Origin: a virus
DNA: 31,207 bases
Direction: 5' to 3' (one strand)
IMG/VR virus record: IMGVR_UViG_3300048839_000217
Coordinates: 1-31,207 of that record
In this document: positions 646 to 26,183 of the stretch, piece by piece
How the letters are laid out: every line of letters begins with the position of its first letter
Position numbering within the stretch: the stretch's first letter is position 1
Notes under the pieces: generated by a model
The model's input: only the letters and a program-made list of their open reading frames with translations
Told to the model about the DNA's origin: nothing
The model's database searches: none
Made by a program: the position numbers and the translations under genes

Positions 646-674
646 TTGATAATTAGAAAACAAAAGAGTATATT
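646..674 (+). promoter_or_regulatory. Sigma70-like promoter of the structured RNA
   Basis: TTGATA at 646-651, a 17-bp spacer, then TATATT at 669-674. Positions 668-679 (GTATATTTAGGT) are identical to 27581-27592 in the early-operon promoter, and GAA follows one base later in both. The expected transcription start is near 681, exactly where the first tRNA-like acceptor stem begins, so little or no leader would need to be removed. Confidence 0.7.
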
Positions 675-681
675 TAGGTAG

Positions 682-820
682 AAGGTGGTGGCGAAATAGG
701 TAGCCGCTAATACTATATACGGAACAGTCGACTATGGTATATAGACAGATTGCGAACCAGTTGTGATTTATCAGTACATCATGAACGCAATCATGTAGGG
801 TGCAAATCCTTACCCACCTT
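682..820 (+). ncRNA. tRNA-like module A (class II-like, unusual)
   Basis: A 7-bp acceptor-like stem (682-688 with 814-820) is followed by a D-arm, GCG-AAATAGGTAGC-CGC at 691-707, that strongly resembles the D-arm of tRNA-Leu, including the GG pair. The T-arm has a 6-bp stem (795-800/808-813) and the 7-nt loop TGCAAAT; a canonical tRNA has a 5-bp stem and T at the second loop position. The anticodon position instead carries an 8-bp hairpin with a 16-nt loop (713-744), then a long 7-bp arm (748-792) where a variable arm would be. No CCA is encoded. I cannot assign an anticodon, so I treat it as tRNA-like rather than as a working tRNA. Confidence 0.4.
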
Positions 821-828
821 TTAAACCC

Positions 829-913
829 GCATATCTCTCGAAAGGGATATATGCCGTCTCAATGGAGTTCGCTCCCTTTCCGTACTGGCTAGCACAGATC
901 GGATAATAGAGAC
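829..913 (+). ncRNA. Linker hairpins between the tRNA-like modules
   Basis: ATATCTC (831-837) pairs with GGGATAT (844-850) around a 6-nt loop. GTCTC (856-860) pairs with GAGAC (909-913) and encloses GGAG-TTCG-CTCC (864-875), a very stable UUCG tetraloop, and a second stem CCG/CGG (880-882/900-902) with CTG/CAG (885-887/895-897) above it. The arrangement is a three-way junction. It shows that the structure is not limited to the two tRNA-like ends. Confidence 0.5.
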
Positions 914-918
914 AAACC

Positions 919-987
919 GTAAGTGTCGAGGTGACTAGCTATCCTCTCAGCGTATGGTAGTAGATAGGTGCAACTCCTATCGCTTAC
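919..987 (+). ncRNA. tRNA-like module B (about 69 nt)
   Basis: A 6-bp acceptor-like stem (919-924 with 982-987) encloses possible small arms GTC-GAGGT-GAC (925-935) and CTATC/GGTAG (939-943/956-960, 12-nt loop). It ends in a T-arm of 6 bp (963-968/976-981) with loop TGCAACT. The loop and 6-bp stem repeat the departure seen in module A. The anticodon-position loop is too long to give an anticodon, and no CCA is encoded. Confidence 0.4.
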
Positions 988-1001
988 TTCATAAAGAAAC
1001 T

Positions 1002-1038
1002 AAAAAAGCCACTTCCTTAATCGGTTGTGGCTCTTTTT
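1002..1038. terminator. Bidirectional terminator between converging units
   Basis: AGCCAC (1007-1012) and GTGGCT (1027-1032) form a stem around a 14-nt loop. It is flanked by an A-run (1002-1007) on one side and a T-run (1033-1038) on the other, so it can end both the plus-strand structured RNA and the minus-strand late operon, whose last gene stops at 1043. Confidence 0.8.
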
Positions 1039-1042
1039 AATC

Positions 1043-2310: not shown

Positions 2311-4899
2311 TTATAATTTTTTTTGCATTGTTGTAAGTCCATCTCCAGTAGACTTTTTATACCCCATTTTATCAAAAAATTCTGGATTCACAACAACTTG
2401 AGCCTTTATTTGTTTCCCGCCTCTTTGTTTAACCATACTCTCCACCTCATCAAGAAAAGTTTTACCCAATCCTTTACCTCTCAAGCTTTCGTCTATTGAA
2501 ATAGAGTGTAATACGCCACGTCTATCATCACCAACTCCTTTCATCAAAAATTCAGCACTCCCAATATTTTTTCCATCCTTATCAACAAGTTTAACAAATC
2601 CACCATTTTCTGTAGAACTATATCCATAATAAGGTTTTTCTTTTATTTCGTAACCAAAGTCTTTTAAAGACTGACCAGAGGCTTTGGCTTTTGAGATAGA
2701 GGAAGATAGATCGTCTACGGATTTTGTAGCCTTATTTAAAAGTGTTCCTTCTTGTAATCCAGCTGTACCTTTTGGTATTTTACCTCCAATTGGTGTTTGA
2801 GGTTTTTTTGTACCTTGTAGACTGAGAGGAAGTGTGTCTTGTAATTGTGGTAATGTTTCTTTAATTTGTTTGATTGCATTATTTGCTACTGTTTTTTCTG
2901 TTCCGCTTAATTTACCAGCTTCTGTTTCGACTCTTGACAACCAATCACCAGCTATAGATCGTATACTTCTACCAGTTTTAACACTTGCTCTCCAAAGTGA
3001 ATAGATAGCAGATCCTATTGCAACCCCAACTGGTATAATAGCTCCAGTTAATGGAATGAGTGCAGTTGTACCAACTACGGTAGTTAGTGTTGGTATTGAT
3101 CGTAATTTTTGTATAGCAGTAGATATACCTGATAATTTTGCAACATTATACATATCAACTTTTGTACTCATTCTATCAAGCACCTCAGATAATTTTGTAT
3201 AGTCTTGTAAAAATTGTTTATATCCAACACCTGAAGCGTTTAATTCAATTAAGTCGTTTATTGTGTTCCTAGACTCTTTTAAACCTTTGTTAAATGCACT
3301 CGCTTTATCAGTACTAAATACTTCTGGTCTTTGTGTTTCAACCCATTTGTCAAAAGCTGTCCTAGCTTTCCAAGCACCTTGTACATCAGCATTCCATTTT
3401 CCATCTTTTATACCTTTGTCAAAAATTCTTATATACTCAGATGACATTGCATCATATATTTTAGAAGCATCACCTGTGATTGTTGAAAAAATACCATTTT
3501 CTTCTAATGCGTTTTTTGATAGATTAAATTGTGTCTTAATAGTATCAGTAGTTAATGCCTGACCACTTGATTGTAAATTCTTATCAACCTGCTTTGCCAA
3601 TTCGGTTTTCTTATTTTTTATTTTTATACCATTTGTTCTTAATTTTTCTCCTTTAAAAAATCCTTCATCAATATCTGGGACAAGTTTATTTAGTTTACTA
3701 GCTAATTGTTTTTCATAGTTTGTTATTTTTGCCTTACCTTTAATAAGTCCATCAACACCTTGTTCAGAAAATGCCTCTTTTAATACTCCTGGAGTTTGTT
3801 TCTCTTGGATCAACCGTTCTGCTATTTTTTGTTTAGTTGATTGATCTTGTTTTTTAAGAAATTCACCTGTTTTTTGTAAGCCAACTTTTGTTGCTTCAAG
3901 ACCTTTTTCTGCGTAAGGTATTACTTTCTCGACAGCTTTACCTCCATATTCTACTGCTTTACTAACACCTTTACCAACAGTTTTAGCAACTGGCTCAGAT
4001 ACTTTTTTGCCATATTTTAATGCTAATAAGTTCCCAAATTCTTGAAATCCTTGCGTAATAACCTTACCTTGTTCAGACTCTTTATCAATGCCCATTACTT
4101 CCATAAACTTATCCCCTGCGAATTGTGAGCCTTCACTTAACTTTTCTAATGGTGCTTGTATTGGTTTTTCTATTGTATCAGGTAGTGCTTGCATAGTAGC
4201 AGATACTGGGCTAAAATACGCTTGTAGTCCACCACCTATCATATCAAATACACCAGACACTCCTTTATATAATCTTTCTTCGTCATTTGGAGTAGTTATT
4301 TTTTGGGATACAATCTCTTCTCCTGGTATAATAGAGGTAATTCCGTTTTGTGTTGTTTGATATGGTGTTCGTACTTCCTCTATTTGTTCTGTTGGTGATA
4401 TAGCTTCACGAACCTTTTCAGAACCACTAACAACTCTTTTACCACCTTCGTATAAACCATCCCATAAATTACCCAATACATCAGAGTCTTTAATATCTTT
4501 TAATGATGAATTTTTAAGAAAATCTGGTAAATTATCAAGATCAGATTGTAATTGTTCTGGTAGTAATGATTTTTGATATTGTGTAAGTTGACTAAATGGC
4601 GTAGTATGTAACTCTTCTGCCTCTTTACGTTGTATAGACTGTTGGTTTTCTTCTTGTGTTGGAGAAACAGCTTTACGGATAGGATCAACTATTGGCTTTA
4701 ATGTTTGAGATGTTTTAGAAAAAGCACTTTCTGCCATTTGTACCATTGGGATTTTTCTCGCATAATCAACAACCTGTTTACCTAAATCTAGTGTTTTTGC
4801 TGATTTATACTCTTGTAATTTTTTAACAGCCTCTACTTTATCGACACCTTGAGATTTATACTCTCGTAGTATTTGTTTATCTTCGTCTGATAATATCAT
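2311..4899 (-). CDS. Internal virion/ejection protein with C-terminal GNAT domain
   Basis: This 862-residue protein is largely helical and charged, with long amphipathic stretches between about residues 300 and 590. A strongly hydrophobic Gly-rich segment (about 604-633) could cross a membrane. The last ~105 residues (757-862) form a GNAT acetyltransferase-like domain with the acetyl-CoA loop RGKGLG (807-812) and the terminal FFDKMGYKK segment. Length, position after the other large virion protein and the membrane segment fit podovirus internal proteins ejected into the host to help DNA entry. A fused acetyltransferase suggests it modifies a host target on entry; that is inference. The GNAT call is good, the ejection role moderate. 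Confidence 0.6.
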   Translation of the reverse strand: MILSDEDKQILREYKSQGVDKVEAVKKLQEYKSAKTLDLGKQVVDYARKIPMVQMAESAFSKTSQTLKPIVDPIRKAVSPTQEENQQSIQRKEAEELHTTPFSQLTQYQKSLLPEQLQSDLDNLPDFLKNSSLKDIKDSDVLGNLWDGLYEGGKRVVSGSEKVREAISPTEQIEEVRTPYQTTQNGITSIIPGEEIVSQKITTPNDEERLYKGVSGVFDMIGGGLQAYFSPVSATMQALPDTIEKPIQAPLEKLSEGSQFAGDKFMEVMGIDKESEQGKVITQGFQEFGNLLALKYGKKVSEPVAKTVGKGVSKAVEYGGKAVEKVIPYAEKGLEATKVGLQKTGEFLKKQDQSTKQKIAERLIQEKQTPGVLKEAFSEQGVDGLIKGKAKITNYEKQLASKLNKLVPDIDEGFFKGEKLRTNGIKIKNKKTELAKQVDKNLQSSGQALTTDTIKTQFNLSKNALEENGIFSTITGDASKIYDAMSSEYIRIFDKGIKDGKWNADVQGAWKARTAFDKWVETQRPEVFSTDKASAFNKGLKESRNTINDLIELNASGVGYKQFLQDYTKLSEVLDRMSTKVDMYNVAKLSGISTAIQKLRSIPTLTTVVGTTALIPLTGAIIPVGVAIGSAIYSLWRASVKTGRSIRSIAGDWLSRVETEAGKLSGTEKTVANNAIKQIKETLPQLQDTLPLSLQGTKKPQTPIGGKIPKGTAGLQEGTLLNKATKSVDDLSSSISKAKASGQSLKDFGYEIKEKPYYGYSSTENGGFVKLVDKDGKNIGSAEFLMKGVGDDRRGVLHSISIDESLRGKGLGKTFLDEVESMVKQRGGKQIKAQVVVNPEFFDKMGYKKSTGDGLTTMQKKL

Positions 4900-21756: not shown

Positions 21757-23578
21757 TTTGTGATTGGTTATCCATAGGAGGTAAATTCTTCACTTCTGTT
21801 GGTTTCTCCAGGTCTTGTGCGTAGACATCTTGACCTAACAGAGATAGTATTTGTTTCTGAATATTAGCTCCTGCTGGTGTACCCACACCAAACTCAAGAG
21901 CTGTTTGTAATAATCGTAGTTGGTAGGTTGTATCGTTCCAGGCAGAGTAATCTGCTTGTACATATATACCTTTCTTTTTAATGTATTCAGCTACTTCTCC
22001 AGCTGTTACATATTCTATCTTACCTTCTTTGTTTCCTTCTTCTCCTTGTTCGTACATATACTTCTTAACTTCTTCCTCTGTAGTACCTTGTTGCATCATT
22101 TGAACTGCTTGATTTTGAACATTCTCTGGAGCTTCTAGTAATTTAACTGTTGCGTTGGTTGCAACTGGAGCTTTATTTGTTTTTGAAATATAATCCTGTA
22201 CAAATTGTACAATCACTCTTCGTAAGAATGCTGCTGAACCTGCATTTATCCTTATAACGTGGTTAATCAGTCTGTTTTTATTTTTTTCAAGAGCTAACGT
22301 AGTTGTTGCTGTTTGTGATGCTGGATAGTCTACGTCTTGTAGAAGTATTCCACCTTGTCTTATTTGTTGAAGGTCGTCGTTTAACATTCTCTCAAACTCA
22401 TTAGAGAGTTGTGCTGTTCTTAAATCGCCTTGCTTTATTTCTTCACCTTGTGATAGCTGGATATAAGAATCATCTCCTTCTGCCTTCACTTGTCGTGATA
22501 ATGATAATTGGTTTAAGAAATTCTCGTATCTATCATCTGACATTTGCACGAACTTATCAGGATTCACATTCCCTTCTGCATATTGATGCGCCATGTTTCT
22601 ACGTCTAACATCATTTCTAGCTATTTTTGCGAATTTATGGTATAACCCTTTTCCGTATAGTTTCCCCATTACAGGGTAGAATTTTAATAATTCAAACGGA
22701 AGATAATTAACTCCATCAAGTTTGAAAGGATAATCAGGTAGATTAGGATCATTATTATCGTATTGTTCTACTATTGTAGCGTTTGATCCAACTATCACAC
22801 GGAATATTCCTTTATCAATATTATAATAGTATCCTCGTTGAGTTAGATATTGTTCTGTATCGTTATCTTTTGTGTCTACTTGTTGTAAGTAAGATGTAAC
22901 TGTTGTGAGTGGTAACTTACCATAATTGAACTTCTTTCCTGTTAGAGAGCGTATTTTACTGTTCTTCTTATCGGGATACATTGCTTTAATCTCGTAGTAT
23001 GGATCTTCGAACACTACCATAGCTTCTCTTGCAAGAGCTTCTCCATTATAATCTCGAATACGAGTTACGTTTACTGGTAAGAATGTTTGTGAAAGTCTTG
23101 TTGATTGGAATTGAATAGGTATTCCTTTCTTAATCTGTGCGTCACTAGCTTTCCCCCACCAAAGTATCAAATTACCCAATAAAGACCAACTTAATGCTCC
23201 TTTATCATCATCTCTAATTTCTGAGTATAATCCGCTTTCGTTTTCAATGTAGGTGATGTAGTCCTTAACAATTTGTCTATGTACTGCGTCTGAATCAGGT
23301 ATTTTAAGAATATAGTCAGCTAACTTCAATTCATCTATCTTATTTTGTACAATATCCTGTAGAAGAGATGGGTTGTATTTTTGAACCTTATCATCTTCAG
23401 GATTAAAACAATCTTCATACATCTGTTCGCCGTCTAGCCAGTCATCTATCTCTTGATTGATTACTGTTTGAGCCGAGGAAACAAATGTAGAAATATGTTT
23501 AAAAAGCTCATCATCTGTATCATTTACTCCGTCTTGTGTTGGTGTTTTGACGAATTTATCGTCATTCTTGTTCATCAT
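21710..23578 (-). CDS. Portal protein
   Basis: A 622-residue, acidic, mixed alpha/beta protein directly after the large terminase gene (stop and start overlap as ATGA at 23575-23578) and ahead of the scaffold and capsid genes. The size and order match the long portal type of podoviruses such as the P22 and T7 groups. Features seen include an N-terminal helical region, a central beta-rich part with many Tyr and Asp residues, and a C-terminal helical segment (YADYSAWNDTT-like, then TYQLRLLQTALEFGV) typical of the stem and barrel. It forms the dodecameric DNA channel at the head vertex. There is no short diagnostic motif. Confidence 0.75.
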   Translation of the reverse strand: MMNKNDDKFVKTPTQDGVNDTDDELFKHISTFVSSAQTVINQEIDDWLDGEQMYEDCFNPEDDKVQKYNPSLLQDIVQNKIDELKLADYILKIPDSDAVHRQIVKDYITYIENESGLYSEIRDDDKGALSWSLLGNLILWWGKASDAQIKKGIPIQFQSTRLSQTFLPVNVTRIRDYNGEALAREAMVVFEDPYYEIKAMYPDKKNSKIRSLTGKKFNYGKLPLTTVTSYLQQVDTKDNDTEQYLTQRGYYYNIDKGIFRVIVGSNATIVEQYDNNDPNLPDYPFKLDGVNYLPFELLKFYPVMGKLYGKGLYHKFAKIARNDVRRRNMAHQYAEGNVNPDKFVQMSDDRYENFLNQLSLSRQVKAEGDDSYIQLSQGEEIKQGDLRTAQLSNEFERMLNDDLQQIRQGGILLQDVDYPASQTATTTLALEKNKNRLINHVIRINAGSAAFLRRVIVQFVQDYISKTNKAPVATNATVKLLEAPENVQNQAVQMMQQGTTEEEVKKYMYEQGEEGNKEGKIEYVTAGEVAEYIKKKGIYVQADYSAWNDTTYQLRLLQTALEFGVGTPAGANIQKQILSLLGQDVYAQDLEKPTEVKNLPPMDNQSQNAVQGLNTTAKNLFR

Positions 23579-24816
23579 ATTCTTGTAAAAGTAGGTATAT
23601 TATGTTTTTTAGATATTTTTAATTCTTCTAGTCTTCTGGACAATGCTTTGACTGCTCCATCTCCTGTAGACTGCTGAAAAGATAGTTTATATCTCACTGC
23701 GTCCATAAGATGATCTCGTTGTCCTATAGCTGGTATATTCAATGTTCTTCCATTTTTATCTGTTTGCCAGAGATAAGAAAGATATTCATAATTAAGGTTT
23801 GTGCTTCTCTTAGTAATACTGATTTTTTGATCCTGTACGAACTGTATTCCTTGTCGTATACTATCTGGTCCTTTTTGACAAGGAAGAATATTCAATCCAT
23901 AACCTCTTATCTCATCAATACTCTTAGGTTCGGCACTATCAGCTATTATAATTGCTCGTGGTAGTGCTAGAAATGTATCAGCTATCTGTTTATTACTCAT
24001 TCCTTTAAGGTAGCAAATCTCATCAAAGATATATCCTCCATTATATCGGTATACAGCAACAATCGCCGTCGGATCATTCGTATATCCAAAATCTAATCCA
24101 TACCCTTCTAAACGAGCTTCGTGTGGTATATCCTCAATGACATTCCAATCCCTATAAATTCTACATTCTGTTCCACTTGGTTCACCTAGCCATTTATATC
24201 GATAAAGTGAAGGTCTTCGCATTCTATCATCTTCTATTTCTTGTCTTACGCTCTCTGGCATCATGCCATACTTGATAGCTATATCGTAGTTTACATTGAT
24301 AATAAGTGTGTTCGGTCTTCCATCTACAACTAATCTCTGGTGTACTGGGTCATCTTCTCGTAATCTATTGTATGTATATATTATTTGACTACCTGGCTTA
24401 CGAACAGTCGGTGTCAAAATTTCTAAACTTTCACTACTAACTGTTTGAGCTTCTTCTACCCATGCAATATCTATTCCTTCGATAGACTTTATGCTTTGTT
24501 CGTTTCTGTGCAACCCCTTAAAAATAAAATCAGATCCATTGATGCTACTAATAATTGCATTGTCAGTAACAACAAACTCACTCATACCATACTGATTGAT
24601 AAGATCAGCCAATAATTGATATGATGAGTCGGCTATAGAGTTTTGAAACTCTCTAAAACAAGCAACCCTGGTTTTTTGTTGTCTAGCTCTTATAAGAAGA
24701 ACTCTTGCTACTGTATGAGATTTTAATGAAAACCTACCACCATATACAGCAGCCTCTCTCCAATCAGAATCAAACAATCGTTTGTACTCGACCGGGATTT
24801 CAATTATGTTTGCCAT
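23575..24816 (-). CDS. Terminase large subunit (ATPase and nuclease)
   Basis: The DNA-packaging motor, of the Terminase_3 (PBSX-like) type. Numbered from the in-frame TTG at 24819: a Walker A-like loop YGGRFSLKSH (26-35); Walker B IDIAWVEEA (116-124), with Glu122 the probable catalytic Glu; and a C-terminal RNase H-like nuclease with Asp243 (GLDFG), Asp294 (IIADSAEP) and Asp373 (DHLMDAVRY). I prefer the ATG at 24816 to that TTG. It overlaps the small-subunit gene by 17 bases, which suggests translational coupling. Motif set and neighbours make the call secure. Confidence 0.93.
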   Translation of the reverse strand: MANIIEIPVEYKRLFDSDWREAAVYGGRFSLKSHTVARVLLIRARQQKTRVACFREFQNSIADSSYQLLADLINQYGMSEFVVTDNAIISSINGSDFIFKGLHRNEQSIKSIEGIDIAWVEEAQTVSSESLEILTPTVRKPGSQIIYTYNRLREDDPVHQRLVVDGRPNTLIINVNYDIAIKYGMMPESVRQEIEDDRMRRPSLYRYKWLGEPSGTECRIYRDWNVIEDIPHEARLEGYGLDFGYTNDPTAIVAVYRYNGGYIFDEICYLKGMSNKQIADTFLALPRAIIIADSAEPKSIDEIRGYGLNILPCQKGPDSIRQGIQFVQDQKISITKRSTNLNYEYLSYLWQTDKNGRTLNIPAIGQRDHLMDAVRYKLSFQQSTGDGAVKALSRRLEELKISKKHNIPTFTRI

Positions 24817-25168
24817 CAATAAATTTTACTAAAATTGGTTCTGGTGTTTTAAGATTGATCTCTTGCTCGGTCTTCTCACTATATCCATGTTTACTCAACA
24901 AGAGCTTTGTAATGTTCGAGTTCCAAGTTCCAAGAAGCCCTTCATTCTGCAACATTTGAGCCCTTAGATTTTGTAACATCCTAGTGATTTCGGAAAATTC
25001 TTTTTTTTTGGTATCTTTAAGCCATTCGTATATTGTGTCTGTATTAATACTCATATAAAGAGCATACCCTTCCATAGTAGGTACAATAAATTTACCAATC
25101 TTTCCTCCATTAGCATATATATCGTAGTATTCTTTTGCTTTCCGTAATATTCCTTCTCCGTATACCAT
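24800..25168 (-). CDS. Terminase small subunit
   Basis: A 122-residue protein resembling gp3-type DNA-packaging proteins. It has an N-terminal helical DNA-binding part (PTMEGYALYMSINTDTIYEW, about 30-49), the FSEITRMLQNLRAQML helix, and a C-terminal LLGTWNSNITKLLLSKHGYSEK-like segment (given in two parts: LLGTWNSNITKLLL, SKHGYSEK). It would recognise the packaging site and recruit the large subunit. The ATG follows an A/T-rich leader, and the gene overlaps the large subunit. Confidence 0.8.
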   Translation of the reverse strand: MVYGEGILRKAKEYYDIYANGGKIGKFIVPTMEGYALYMSINTDTIYEWLKDTKKKEFSEITRMLQNLRAQMLQNEGLLGTWNSNITKLLLSKHGYSEKTEQEINLKTPEPILVKFIDGKHN

Positions 25169-26108: not shown

Positions 26109-26183
26109 TGGGTCTGGAGGTTGGATTCGAACCAACGACCTACTGCTTATGAGACAGTCGAGCTACCACTGCTCTACCCCAGA
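26109..26183 (-). tRNA. tRNA with CAU anticodon (Met-type), CCA encoded
   Basis: A complete cloverleaf on the minus strand: 7-bp acceptor stem (26177-26183 with 26113-26119, one G-U pair), 4-bp D-stem GAGC/GCTC with a 7-nt loop, 5-bp anticodon stem with loop CTCATAA (anticodon CAU), 5-nt variable loop and a T-arm GTTGG/CCAAC with loop TTCGAAT. The last three bases encode CCA. The discriminator base is C, unusual for Met tRNAs, which normally have A. CAU can belong to Met, initiator Met or lysidine-modified Ile; the D-loop and lack of initiator features favour elongator-like or Ile2. It lies in front of the late operon. Confidence 0.92.

What the first reader, a model, noticed from the sequence alone, without database searches (positions are those of the whole stretch)
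646..1038. Promoter-to-terminator structured RNA with two tRNA-like modules
A sigma70-like promoter (646-674) predicts a start at about 681. A terminator (1002-1038) closes a ~360-nt transcript with no frame. It contains at least nine stems, two of them acceptor-like and two T-arm-like. Module A has a Leu-type D-arm but no readable anticodon; module B is smaller. This is not a known phage RNA class that I can recognise (it is much smaller than GOLLD or ROOL). It could be a tRNA mimic, a decoy for tRNA-handling enzymes, or a new regulatory RNA.
Basis: partly seen in the sequence, partly recalled or inferred. Interest (0 to 1): 0.75.

Follow-up and report, generated by a model that had tools for sequence, protein, structure and literature searches.

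The report
Widespread anticodon-less tRNA-like phage RNA
This phage carries a small RNA gene shaped like a transfer RNA but lacking the part that reads the genetic code, and it belongs to a large, apparently undescribed family found in hundreds of phages and some plasmids, usually beside the genes that start virus assembly.

Summary
Module A (682-820) belongs to a large family, absent from Rfam 15, of tRNA-like RNAs in phages, prophages and enterococcal pheromone plasmids. The family has a 7-bp acceptor stem, a tRNA-Leu-type D-arm (TGGCGGAATAGGTAGACGC), a hypervariable insert where the anticodon and variable arms should be, an invariant U48, a 6-bp T-stem and the T-loop UGCAAAU. I found at least 272 non-redundant members. 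Acceptor and T-stem pairs covary strongly (MI 0.8-1.7 bits; shuffles at most 0.1). A covariance model built without the window finds module A at 57 bits, E=2e-14. Members lack a standard anticodon arm, rarely encode CCA, have no fixed discriminator base, and carry a 13-bp acceptor/T stack with G55, so they are not translation adaptors. They typically lie between the late transcription activator (ArpU/RinA/sigma) and HNH/terminase genes, or in tRNA clusters. Module B (919-987) is a reduced tRNA-like of lower confidence; similar ones follow some other members. The terminator is sound; the promoter is no better than chance. I propose a free-standing late RNA that engages a host tRNA-elbow-binding factor. 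That function is inferred, not shown.

The parts
646..674 (+). sigma70-like promoter string (TTGATA-17-TATATT)
   Evidence: 10 of 12 matches, but such sites are no more frequent than in shuffles; weak
682..820 (+). module A: tRNA-like element, member of the phage family described here
   Evidence: covariance model R1 (window not in its training set): 57.2 bits, E=2e-14
682..688 (+). acceptor stem 5' strand AAGGTGG, pairs with 814-820 CCACCTT (7 bp)
   Evidence: alignment; same helix covaries across 212 members
689..707 (+). Leu-type D-arm TGGCGAAATAGGTAGCCGC (U8, A14, A15, G18 G19)
   Evidence: sequence; matches the family consensus TGGCGGAATAGGTAGACGC
708..747 (+). anticodon-position segment: 8-bp hairpin CTATATAC/GTATATAG with an enlarged loop instead of an anticodon arm
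   Evidence: constrained fold; sequence not conserved in the family
748..792 (+). long variable arm, closing helix GATTGCG/CGCAATC flush with the U48 segment
   Evidence: 7-bp helix; a helix flush at this point is enriched in the family (35% against 3.5% in shuffles)
793..813 (+). AU(48) + T-arm: 6-bp stem GTAGGG/CCTTAC, loop UGCAAAU (G55)
   Evidence: family T-loop
814..820 (+). acceptor stem 3' strand CCACCTT; no CCA follows
   Evidence: sequence; CCA encoded in 3 of 244 family members
829..854 (+). spacer hairpin GCATATC..GAAA..GATATATGC
   Evidence: fold only; no comparative support
856..913 (+). spacer three-way junction closed by GTCTC/GAGAC
   Evidence: fold only
919..987 (+). module B: reduced tRNA-like (7-bp acceptor GTAAGTG/CGCTTAC, small D-like hairpin 928-946, no anticodon stem, T-arm 964-980 with loop UGCAACU)
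   Evidence: model R1 13.2 bits, E=0.083; weak RF00233 match 13.3 bits
1001..1039 (+). intrinsic terminator, GCCAC stem with U-tract
   Evidence: fold -15.3 kcal/mol

Best explanation
Shown: module A is one member of a large family of mobile-element RNAs that keep the acceptor stem, D-arm and T-arm (the elbow half) of a tRNA-Leu, while the anticodon arm is replaced by a hypervariable insert. They are therefore not translation adaptors. It folds into a tRNA-like elbow and works by engaging a host factor that reads the elbow, the most likely candidates being the tRNA processing machinery (RNase P/RNase Z) or LeuRS. It would either occupy that factor as a mimic or use it for its own maturation, while the variable insert gives each phage its own payload. 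The 13-bp acceptor/T stack, as in tRNA-Sec, and G55 in place of U/pseudouridine 55 would keep it out of the EF-Tu/decoding cycle. Module B is probably a second, more reduced tRNA-like of the same transcript.
For: Family and covariation. In an unbiased set fetched by primary motif only, 52 of 57 have at least 6 of 7 acceptor pairs. Among short-insert members, again with no pairing requested, 57 of 79 match occurrences have 7 of 7. Window membership E=2e-14. tRNA-Leu ancestry: genuine tRNA-Leu genes score 35-44 bits with the same model against 50 or more for most members, and the D-arm equals the tRNA-Leu D-arm. Not an adaptor: ARAGORN finds none of the short-insert members; discriminator A109/T81/G30/C24 and CCA in 3 of 244. 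Elbow residues A14, A15, U48, G18 and G19 are at or near 100%. In phage phiFL2A the insert is almost absent while D- and T-arm and acceptor remain. Free-standing here: terminator at 1001-1039 and convergent genes beyond it. Late position elsewhere: late activators upstream, terminase/HNH downstream. Elbow-binding host factors include RNase P, RNase Z, LeuRS and the CCA-adding enzyme (PMC4810234).
Against: No transcript or binding partner is shown. LeuRS charging needs A73 (general knowledge), which is not conserved. The missing CCA and the pairing of position -1 with 73 in 49% (unbiased set) to 69% of members argue against ordinary tRNA end maturation. In many phages the element heads the late operon, which also fits a cis-acting leader.
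Confidence: 0.42

Rival explanations
1. Cis-acting leader element: the tRNA-like fold sits in the leader of long late or conjugation operons and controls read-through, RNA processing or stability of the downstream message, like put antitermination RNAs or RNase P-cleaved leaders.
For: Recurrent position between the late activator (phrog_36/248, sigma) and terminase/HNH; a terminator often lies between element and next gene. On pTEF1 it lies in the sea1-asa1 gap next to a PrgU (DUF5406) gene, and the corresponding prgA-prgB 5' UTR of pCF10 is implicated in post-transcriptional control (PMC8265641).
Against: In the window nothing on the + strand follows the terminator: the next genes are convergent. 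In large phages the element lies inside tRNA clusters, and some genomes hold 2-4 copies.
Confidence: 0.27
2. tRNA scaffold: acceptor, D- and T-arm only stabilise and display the hypervariable insert, which is the working part (for example an antisense or protein-binding RNA).
For: Insert hypervariable in sequence and length (36-149 nt, median 75) on a near-invariant scaffold; a closing helix flush with U48; several copies with different inserts in one phage.
Against: The window insert has no antisense match to its own phage above shuffles (11 nt against mean 11.0); phiFL2A has almost no insert.
Confidence: 0.2
3. Decayed or pseudo-tRNA-Leu genes without function, or tRNA genes with an unrecognised anticodon arm.
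For: tRNA-Leu ancestry; some members lie in tRNA arrays.
Against: Hundreds of diverged members keep compensatory pairs, U48 and the derived G55 and 13-bp stack; no standard anticodon arm even in short members. Decay would not do this.
Confidence: 0.03
4. The fold is a chance structure.
For: None.
Against: z = -3.8, E=2e-14, family covariation.
Confidence: 0.01

Closest known systems
Bacterial tRNA-Leu (RF00005)
   Same: 7-bp acceptor, D-arm TGGCGGAAT.GGTAGACGC, A15-U48, G18G19, 7-nt T-loop, long variable arm
   Different: No anticodon arm, 6-bp T-stem (13-bp stack), G55, no fixed discriminator, no CCA, insert 36-149 nt; below the Rfam threshold
Tymovirus/Pomovirus tRNA-like 3' UTR element (RF00233)
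   Same: Viral tRNA mimic; T-arm GGUGCAACUCC is identical to module B and one base from module A
   Different: RNA virus 3' end with pseudoknotted acceptor; Rfam match only 13.3 bits
tmRNA (RF00023)
   Same: tRNA-like domain without anticodon stem, D-loop and T-arm, long insert
   Different: No tag reading frame, no Ala acceptor G-U pair, no SmpB-type ring of pseudoknots; not matched
YrlA bacterial Y RNA
   Same: Non-coding RNA with a tRNA-like module (from memory)
   Different: No Rfam match; no Ro60/Rsr context seen
Listeria sRNA rliG (RF02415)
   Same: Occupies the same late-regulator-to-terminase gap in Listeria phages; its 5' hairpin precedes the tRNA-like element in vB_LmoS_188
   Different: rliG itself, as in A118, lacks the tRNA-like element
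Non-ribosomal tRNA-Gly of staphylococci
   Same: T-loop GUGC instead of GTPsiC (from memory)
   Different: Those retain anticodon arms and donate glycine to peptidoglycan
GOLLD/ROOL phage RNAs
   Same: Large non-coding phage RNAs often near tRNAs
   Different: Much larger; no match

Membership tests
tRNA (RF00005) / tRNA-Leu gene | cloverleaf with 5-bp anticodon stem and 7-nt anticodon loop | tested here: not met
   ARAGORN and Rfam negative; 8-bp hairpin with enlarged loop in its place
tRNA (RF00005) / tRNA-Leu gene | Leu-type D-arm and elbow residues | tested here: met
   TGGCGAAATAGGTAGCCGC, U48
tRNA (RF00005) / tRNA-Leu gene | A73 and CCA end | tested here: inconclusive
   Family discriminator mixed; CCA encoded in 3 of 244; post-transcriptional CCA addition not testable here
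RF00233 Tymo_tRNA-like | covariance model score at least 40 bits | tested here: not met
   13.3 bits on module B
tmRNA RF00023 | tRNA-like domain plus tag reading frame | tested here: not met
   No Rfam or ARAGORN match in the window
GOLLD / ROOL / any Rfam 15 family | match at gathering score | tested here: not met
   Only tRNA-Met at 26112-26183
New family described here (phage anticodon-less tRNA-Leu-like RNA) | 7-bp acceptor, Leu D-arm, insert, U48, 6-bp T-stem, loop UGCAANU | tested here: met
   Module A E=2e-14
New family described here (phage anticodon-less tRNA-Leu-like RNA) | same, for module B | tested here: inconclusive
   13.2 bits, E=0.083; no Leu D-arm; T-loop UGCAACU
New family described here (phage anticodon-less tRNA-Leu-like RNA) | position between late activator and terminase (frequent in the family, not universal) | tested here: not met
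   In the window it lies between two small + strand ORFs and the convergent CHAP gene; terminase is at 23575-24819
New family described here (phage anticodon-less tRNA-Leu-like RNA) | expressed as an RNA | not testable with these tools
   No transcriptome; the Listeria rliG sRNA comes from the same gap

The most novel reading that the evidence does not exclude
Double-stranded DNA phages and conjugative plasmids of Bacillota, and phages of some other hosts, share a previously undescribed family of tRNA-Leu-derived, anticodon-less RNAs. They act outside decoding, in trans, on a host tRNA-elbow-binding factor during late infection or conjugation.
Probability: 0.4. Interest if true: 0.9.

Novelty: new variant of a known kind. 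Interest (0 to 1): 0.8.

Why it matters
tRNA mimicry is best known from plant RNA viruses. Here a tRNA-Leu-derived, non-decoding RNA recurs in well-studied DNA phages (SPbeta group, SBSphiJ, Listeria B054/P70 groups, Enterococcus phiFL, Brochothrix BL3) and in the pheromone plasmid pTEF1, yet standard annotation misses it. It gives a defined target for asking why phages keep the tRNA elbow without the anticodon, what fills the long unexplained gap between late activator and terminase, and possibly what the PrgU family of PUA-fold proteins recognises. The family can be genome-mined at once with the motif given, and tested in laboratory B. subtilis phages.

Tried and rejected
Rfam at gathering and at E up to 10, and ARAGORN: no hit. 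DNA similarity of 500-1200 to phages: none. Relatives through the 281-aa neighbour protein: none. Relatives through terminase: 42 loci, but none carries the element, so covariation had to be measured on unrelated phages. A common pseudoknot between the anticodon-position segment and the variable arm interior: not general; enriched 2-3 fold only for inserts under 80 nt, so not claimed for the window. An antisense target in the phage's own genome: none above shuffles. Conservation in ordinary bacterial chromosomes: rejected. The motif occurs in 2 of 398 Bacillota, 2 of 296 Bacteroidota and 2 of 299 Pseudomonadota genomes, one of each being the seed genome and the others chance-like sequences. 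Module A plus module B as an obligatory pair: rejected; tRNA-likes or true tRNAs lie downstream in 30 and upstream in 23 of 211 loci. Aminoacylation by LeuRS as the shared function: disfavoured by the mixed discriminator. Literature searches for a described phage tRNA-like family found none, but only open-licence papers are held.

Full report
Observation. Window 646-1042 lies between two small + strand ORFs (8-304, 342-575) and a convergent CHAP-domain gene (1043-1393, -). The RNA strand 680-1040 folds at -106.5 kcal/mol against -88.2 +/- 4.9 for shuffles (z = -3.8). The terminator is sound. The promoter string is no more frequent than in shuffles, so the start site is a guess. Rfam 15 and ARAGORN find only a tRNA-Met at 26109-26183.

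Anatomy of module A (682-820): acceptor AAGGTGG/CCACCTT; U8 G9; D-arm GCG-AAATAGGTAGC-CGC; a 40-nt segment with an 8-bp hairpin where the anticodon arm should be; a 45-nt variable arm closed by GATTGCG/CGCAATC; A-U48; a 6-bp T-stem GTAGGG/CCTTAC with loop UGCAAAU; no CCA. Module B (919-987): acceptor GTAAGTG/CGCTTAC, a small hairpin GAGG/CCTC in the D position, no anticodon stem, T-arm ATAGG-UGCAACU-CCTAT.

The family. A pattern made only of part of the D-loop and the T-arm loop (GGTAGNNGC ... GGTGCAAATCC) was scanned through IMG/VR. Although no pairing and no 5' half of the D-arm was asked for, the hits carry TGGCGGAATA before GGTAG and complementary acceptor strands. In the set fetched from GTDB genomes by primary motif alone, 52 of 57 non-redundant elements have at least 6 of 7 acceptor pairs and 98-100% of T-stem pairs. 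Of 79 short-insert match occurrences, 57 have 7 of 7 and 11 have 6 of 7. Merged, there are 272 non-redundant inserts, a lower bound.

Covariation. On 212 non-redundant elements, acceptor pairs 1-6 each use all four Watson-Crick types, with mutual information 0.98-1.67 bits against at most 0.10 in shuffles. T-stem pairs 49-51 behave likewise (0.81-1.11 bits). The extra pair 48-66 is paired in 99.5% (GC 184, AU 15, CG 5). These 212 were filtered for pairing, so the unbiased figures above matter more than the percentages; the mutual information is not created by the filter alone, because four pair types are used. The count of structure pairs on 34 insert-trimmed members gives a covariation score of 0.85 against 0.21 shuffled and at most 0.14 for slid partners; helix 3 there was chosen for pairing and does not count as evidence. 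Independently, a helix flush with the A-U48 segment occurs in 35% of inserts (score 6 or more) against 3.5% of shuffled inserts.

Membership of the window. A covariance model from those 34 members, without the window, finds 682-820 at 57.2 bits (E=2e-14) and module B at 13.2 bits (E=0.083). Genuine tRNA-Leu genes score 35-44 bits, most family members 50-71. Module A is therefore a firm member derived from the tRNA-Leu lineage, and module B is a tRNA-like of uncertain kinship. The family model was built from stitched sequences (inserts trimmed), so E-values are rough, but the margin is large.

What it is not. Short members have no standard anticodon arm and ARAGORN calls none of them. The discriminator is mixed and CCA is encoded in 3 of 244. 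The T-stem is 6 bp (13-bp stack, as in tRNA-Sec) and position 55 is G. By general knowledge these features disfavour EF-Tu/decoding use. In phiFL2A the insert has nearly vanished while the elbow half stays, which points to the elbow half as the essential part.

Distribution and context. INPHARED: 214 phage records match a 30-nt T-arm probe at a permissive E limit of 10 (Listeria 70, Bacillus 45, Enterococcus 37, Rhodobacter 22, Leuconostoc 13); of the 16 regions I read closely, A118 lacks the element, P70 (L310) is degenerate, and D6E carries the canonical loop TTCGAAT. PLSDB: 137 records, 134 of them Enterococcus, among them pTEF1. Random bacterial genomes hold it rarely. Of 73 upstream neighbour ORFs, 16 match phrog_36 and 11 phrog_248 (late transcription regulators) and several match sigma factors; downstream neighbours are mostly HNH endonucleases and terminase subunits. 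This is the gap that in Listeria phages also yields the sRNA rliG. In larger phages the elements lie in tRNA arrays with skipping-rope and cow-rumen-4 RNAs nearby. Further reduced tRNA-likes that ARAGORN does not call occur next to several members, which makes the window's A + B arrangement recurrent but not obligatory.

Mechanism. Shown: a conserved acceptor/D/T half with no decoding half, on mobile elements. Inferred: engagement of a host elbow-binding factor. The elbow is read by RNase P, RNase Z, LeuRS, the CCA-adding enzyme and the ribosome, and the TYMV tRNA-like element keeps a near-identical elbow while diverging elsewhere (PMC4810234). The Leu-type core favours LeuRS or a general processing enzyme, but the lack of a fixed A73 argues against charging. 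In the window the unit ends in a terminator before convergent genes, so a cis effect on late genes is unlikely here; elsewhere the late-operon leader position keeps a cis role open. On pTEF1 the element is about 280 nt upstream of a PrgU-family gene (PF17400), a PUA-fold RNA-binding protein that acts through intergenic RNA (PMC8265641). This is a lead for a cognate protein in that branch only.

Limits. No expression data; close relatives of this phage lack the element; novelty is judged against Rfam 15 and open-licence papers only.

Noticed in passing
L379:3934-4642 (pTEF1): The tRNA-like element lies in the sea1/prgA-asa1/prgB gap, followed by a second reduced tRNA-like and a PrgU-family (DUF5406, PUA fold) gene; PrgU's RNA target is unresolved in the literature.
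   Followed up: partly
L299:2748-3029: In Listeria phage vB_LmoS_188 the conserved 5' hairpin of sRNA rliG directly precedes the tRNA-like element; in A118 the element is absent.
   Followed up: partly
L297:2905-4026 and L298:3030-3320: SPbeta-type and BSP38-type phages share further conserved non-coding segments downstream of the element (AATAATGCCCTT..TTATTATGCGG; TTCGG..CACTTA..GATGCGTCT), suggesting a longer RNA of about 1 kb.
   Followed up: no
L315:1858-2029 (phage D6E): Family member with the canonical T-loop TTCGAAT instead of TGCAAAT.
   Followed up: no
L202, L227, L267, L348: Four of 212 inserts contain a complete extra T-arm with a TTCRANY loop (0.05 expected), as if a second T-arm were nested in the insert.
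   Followed up: partly
L088:1716-1801 and L178:637-725: Phage tRNA arrays with tRNA-Pyl (CUA) calls by ARAGORN together with family members.
   Followed up: no
window 26109-26183: Ordinary phage tRNA-Met (CAT).
   Followed up: no
window 2311-4899: 862-aa virion-like protein with a C-terminal GNAT acetyltransferase domain.
   Followed up: no
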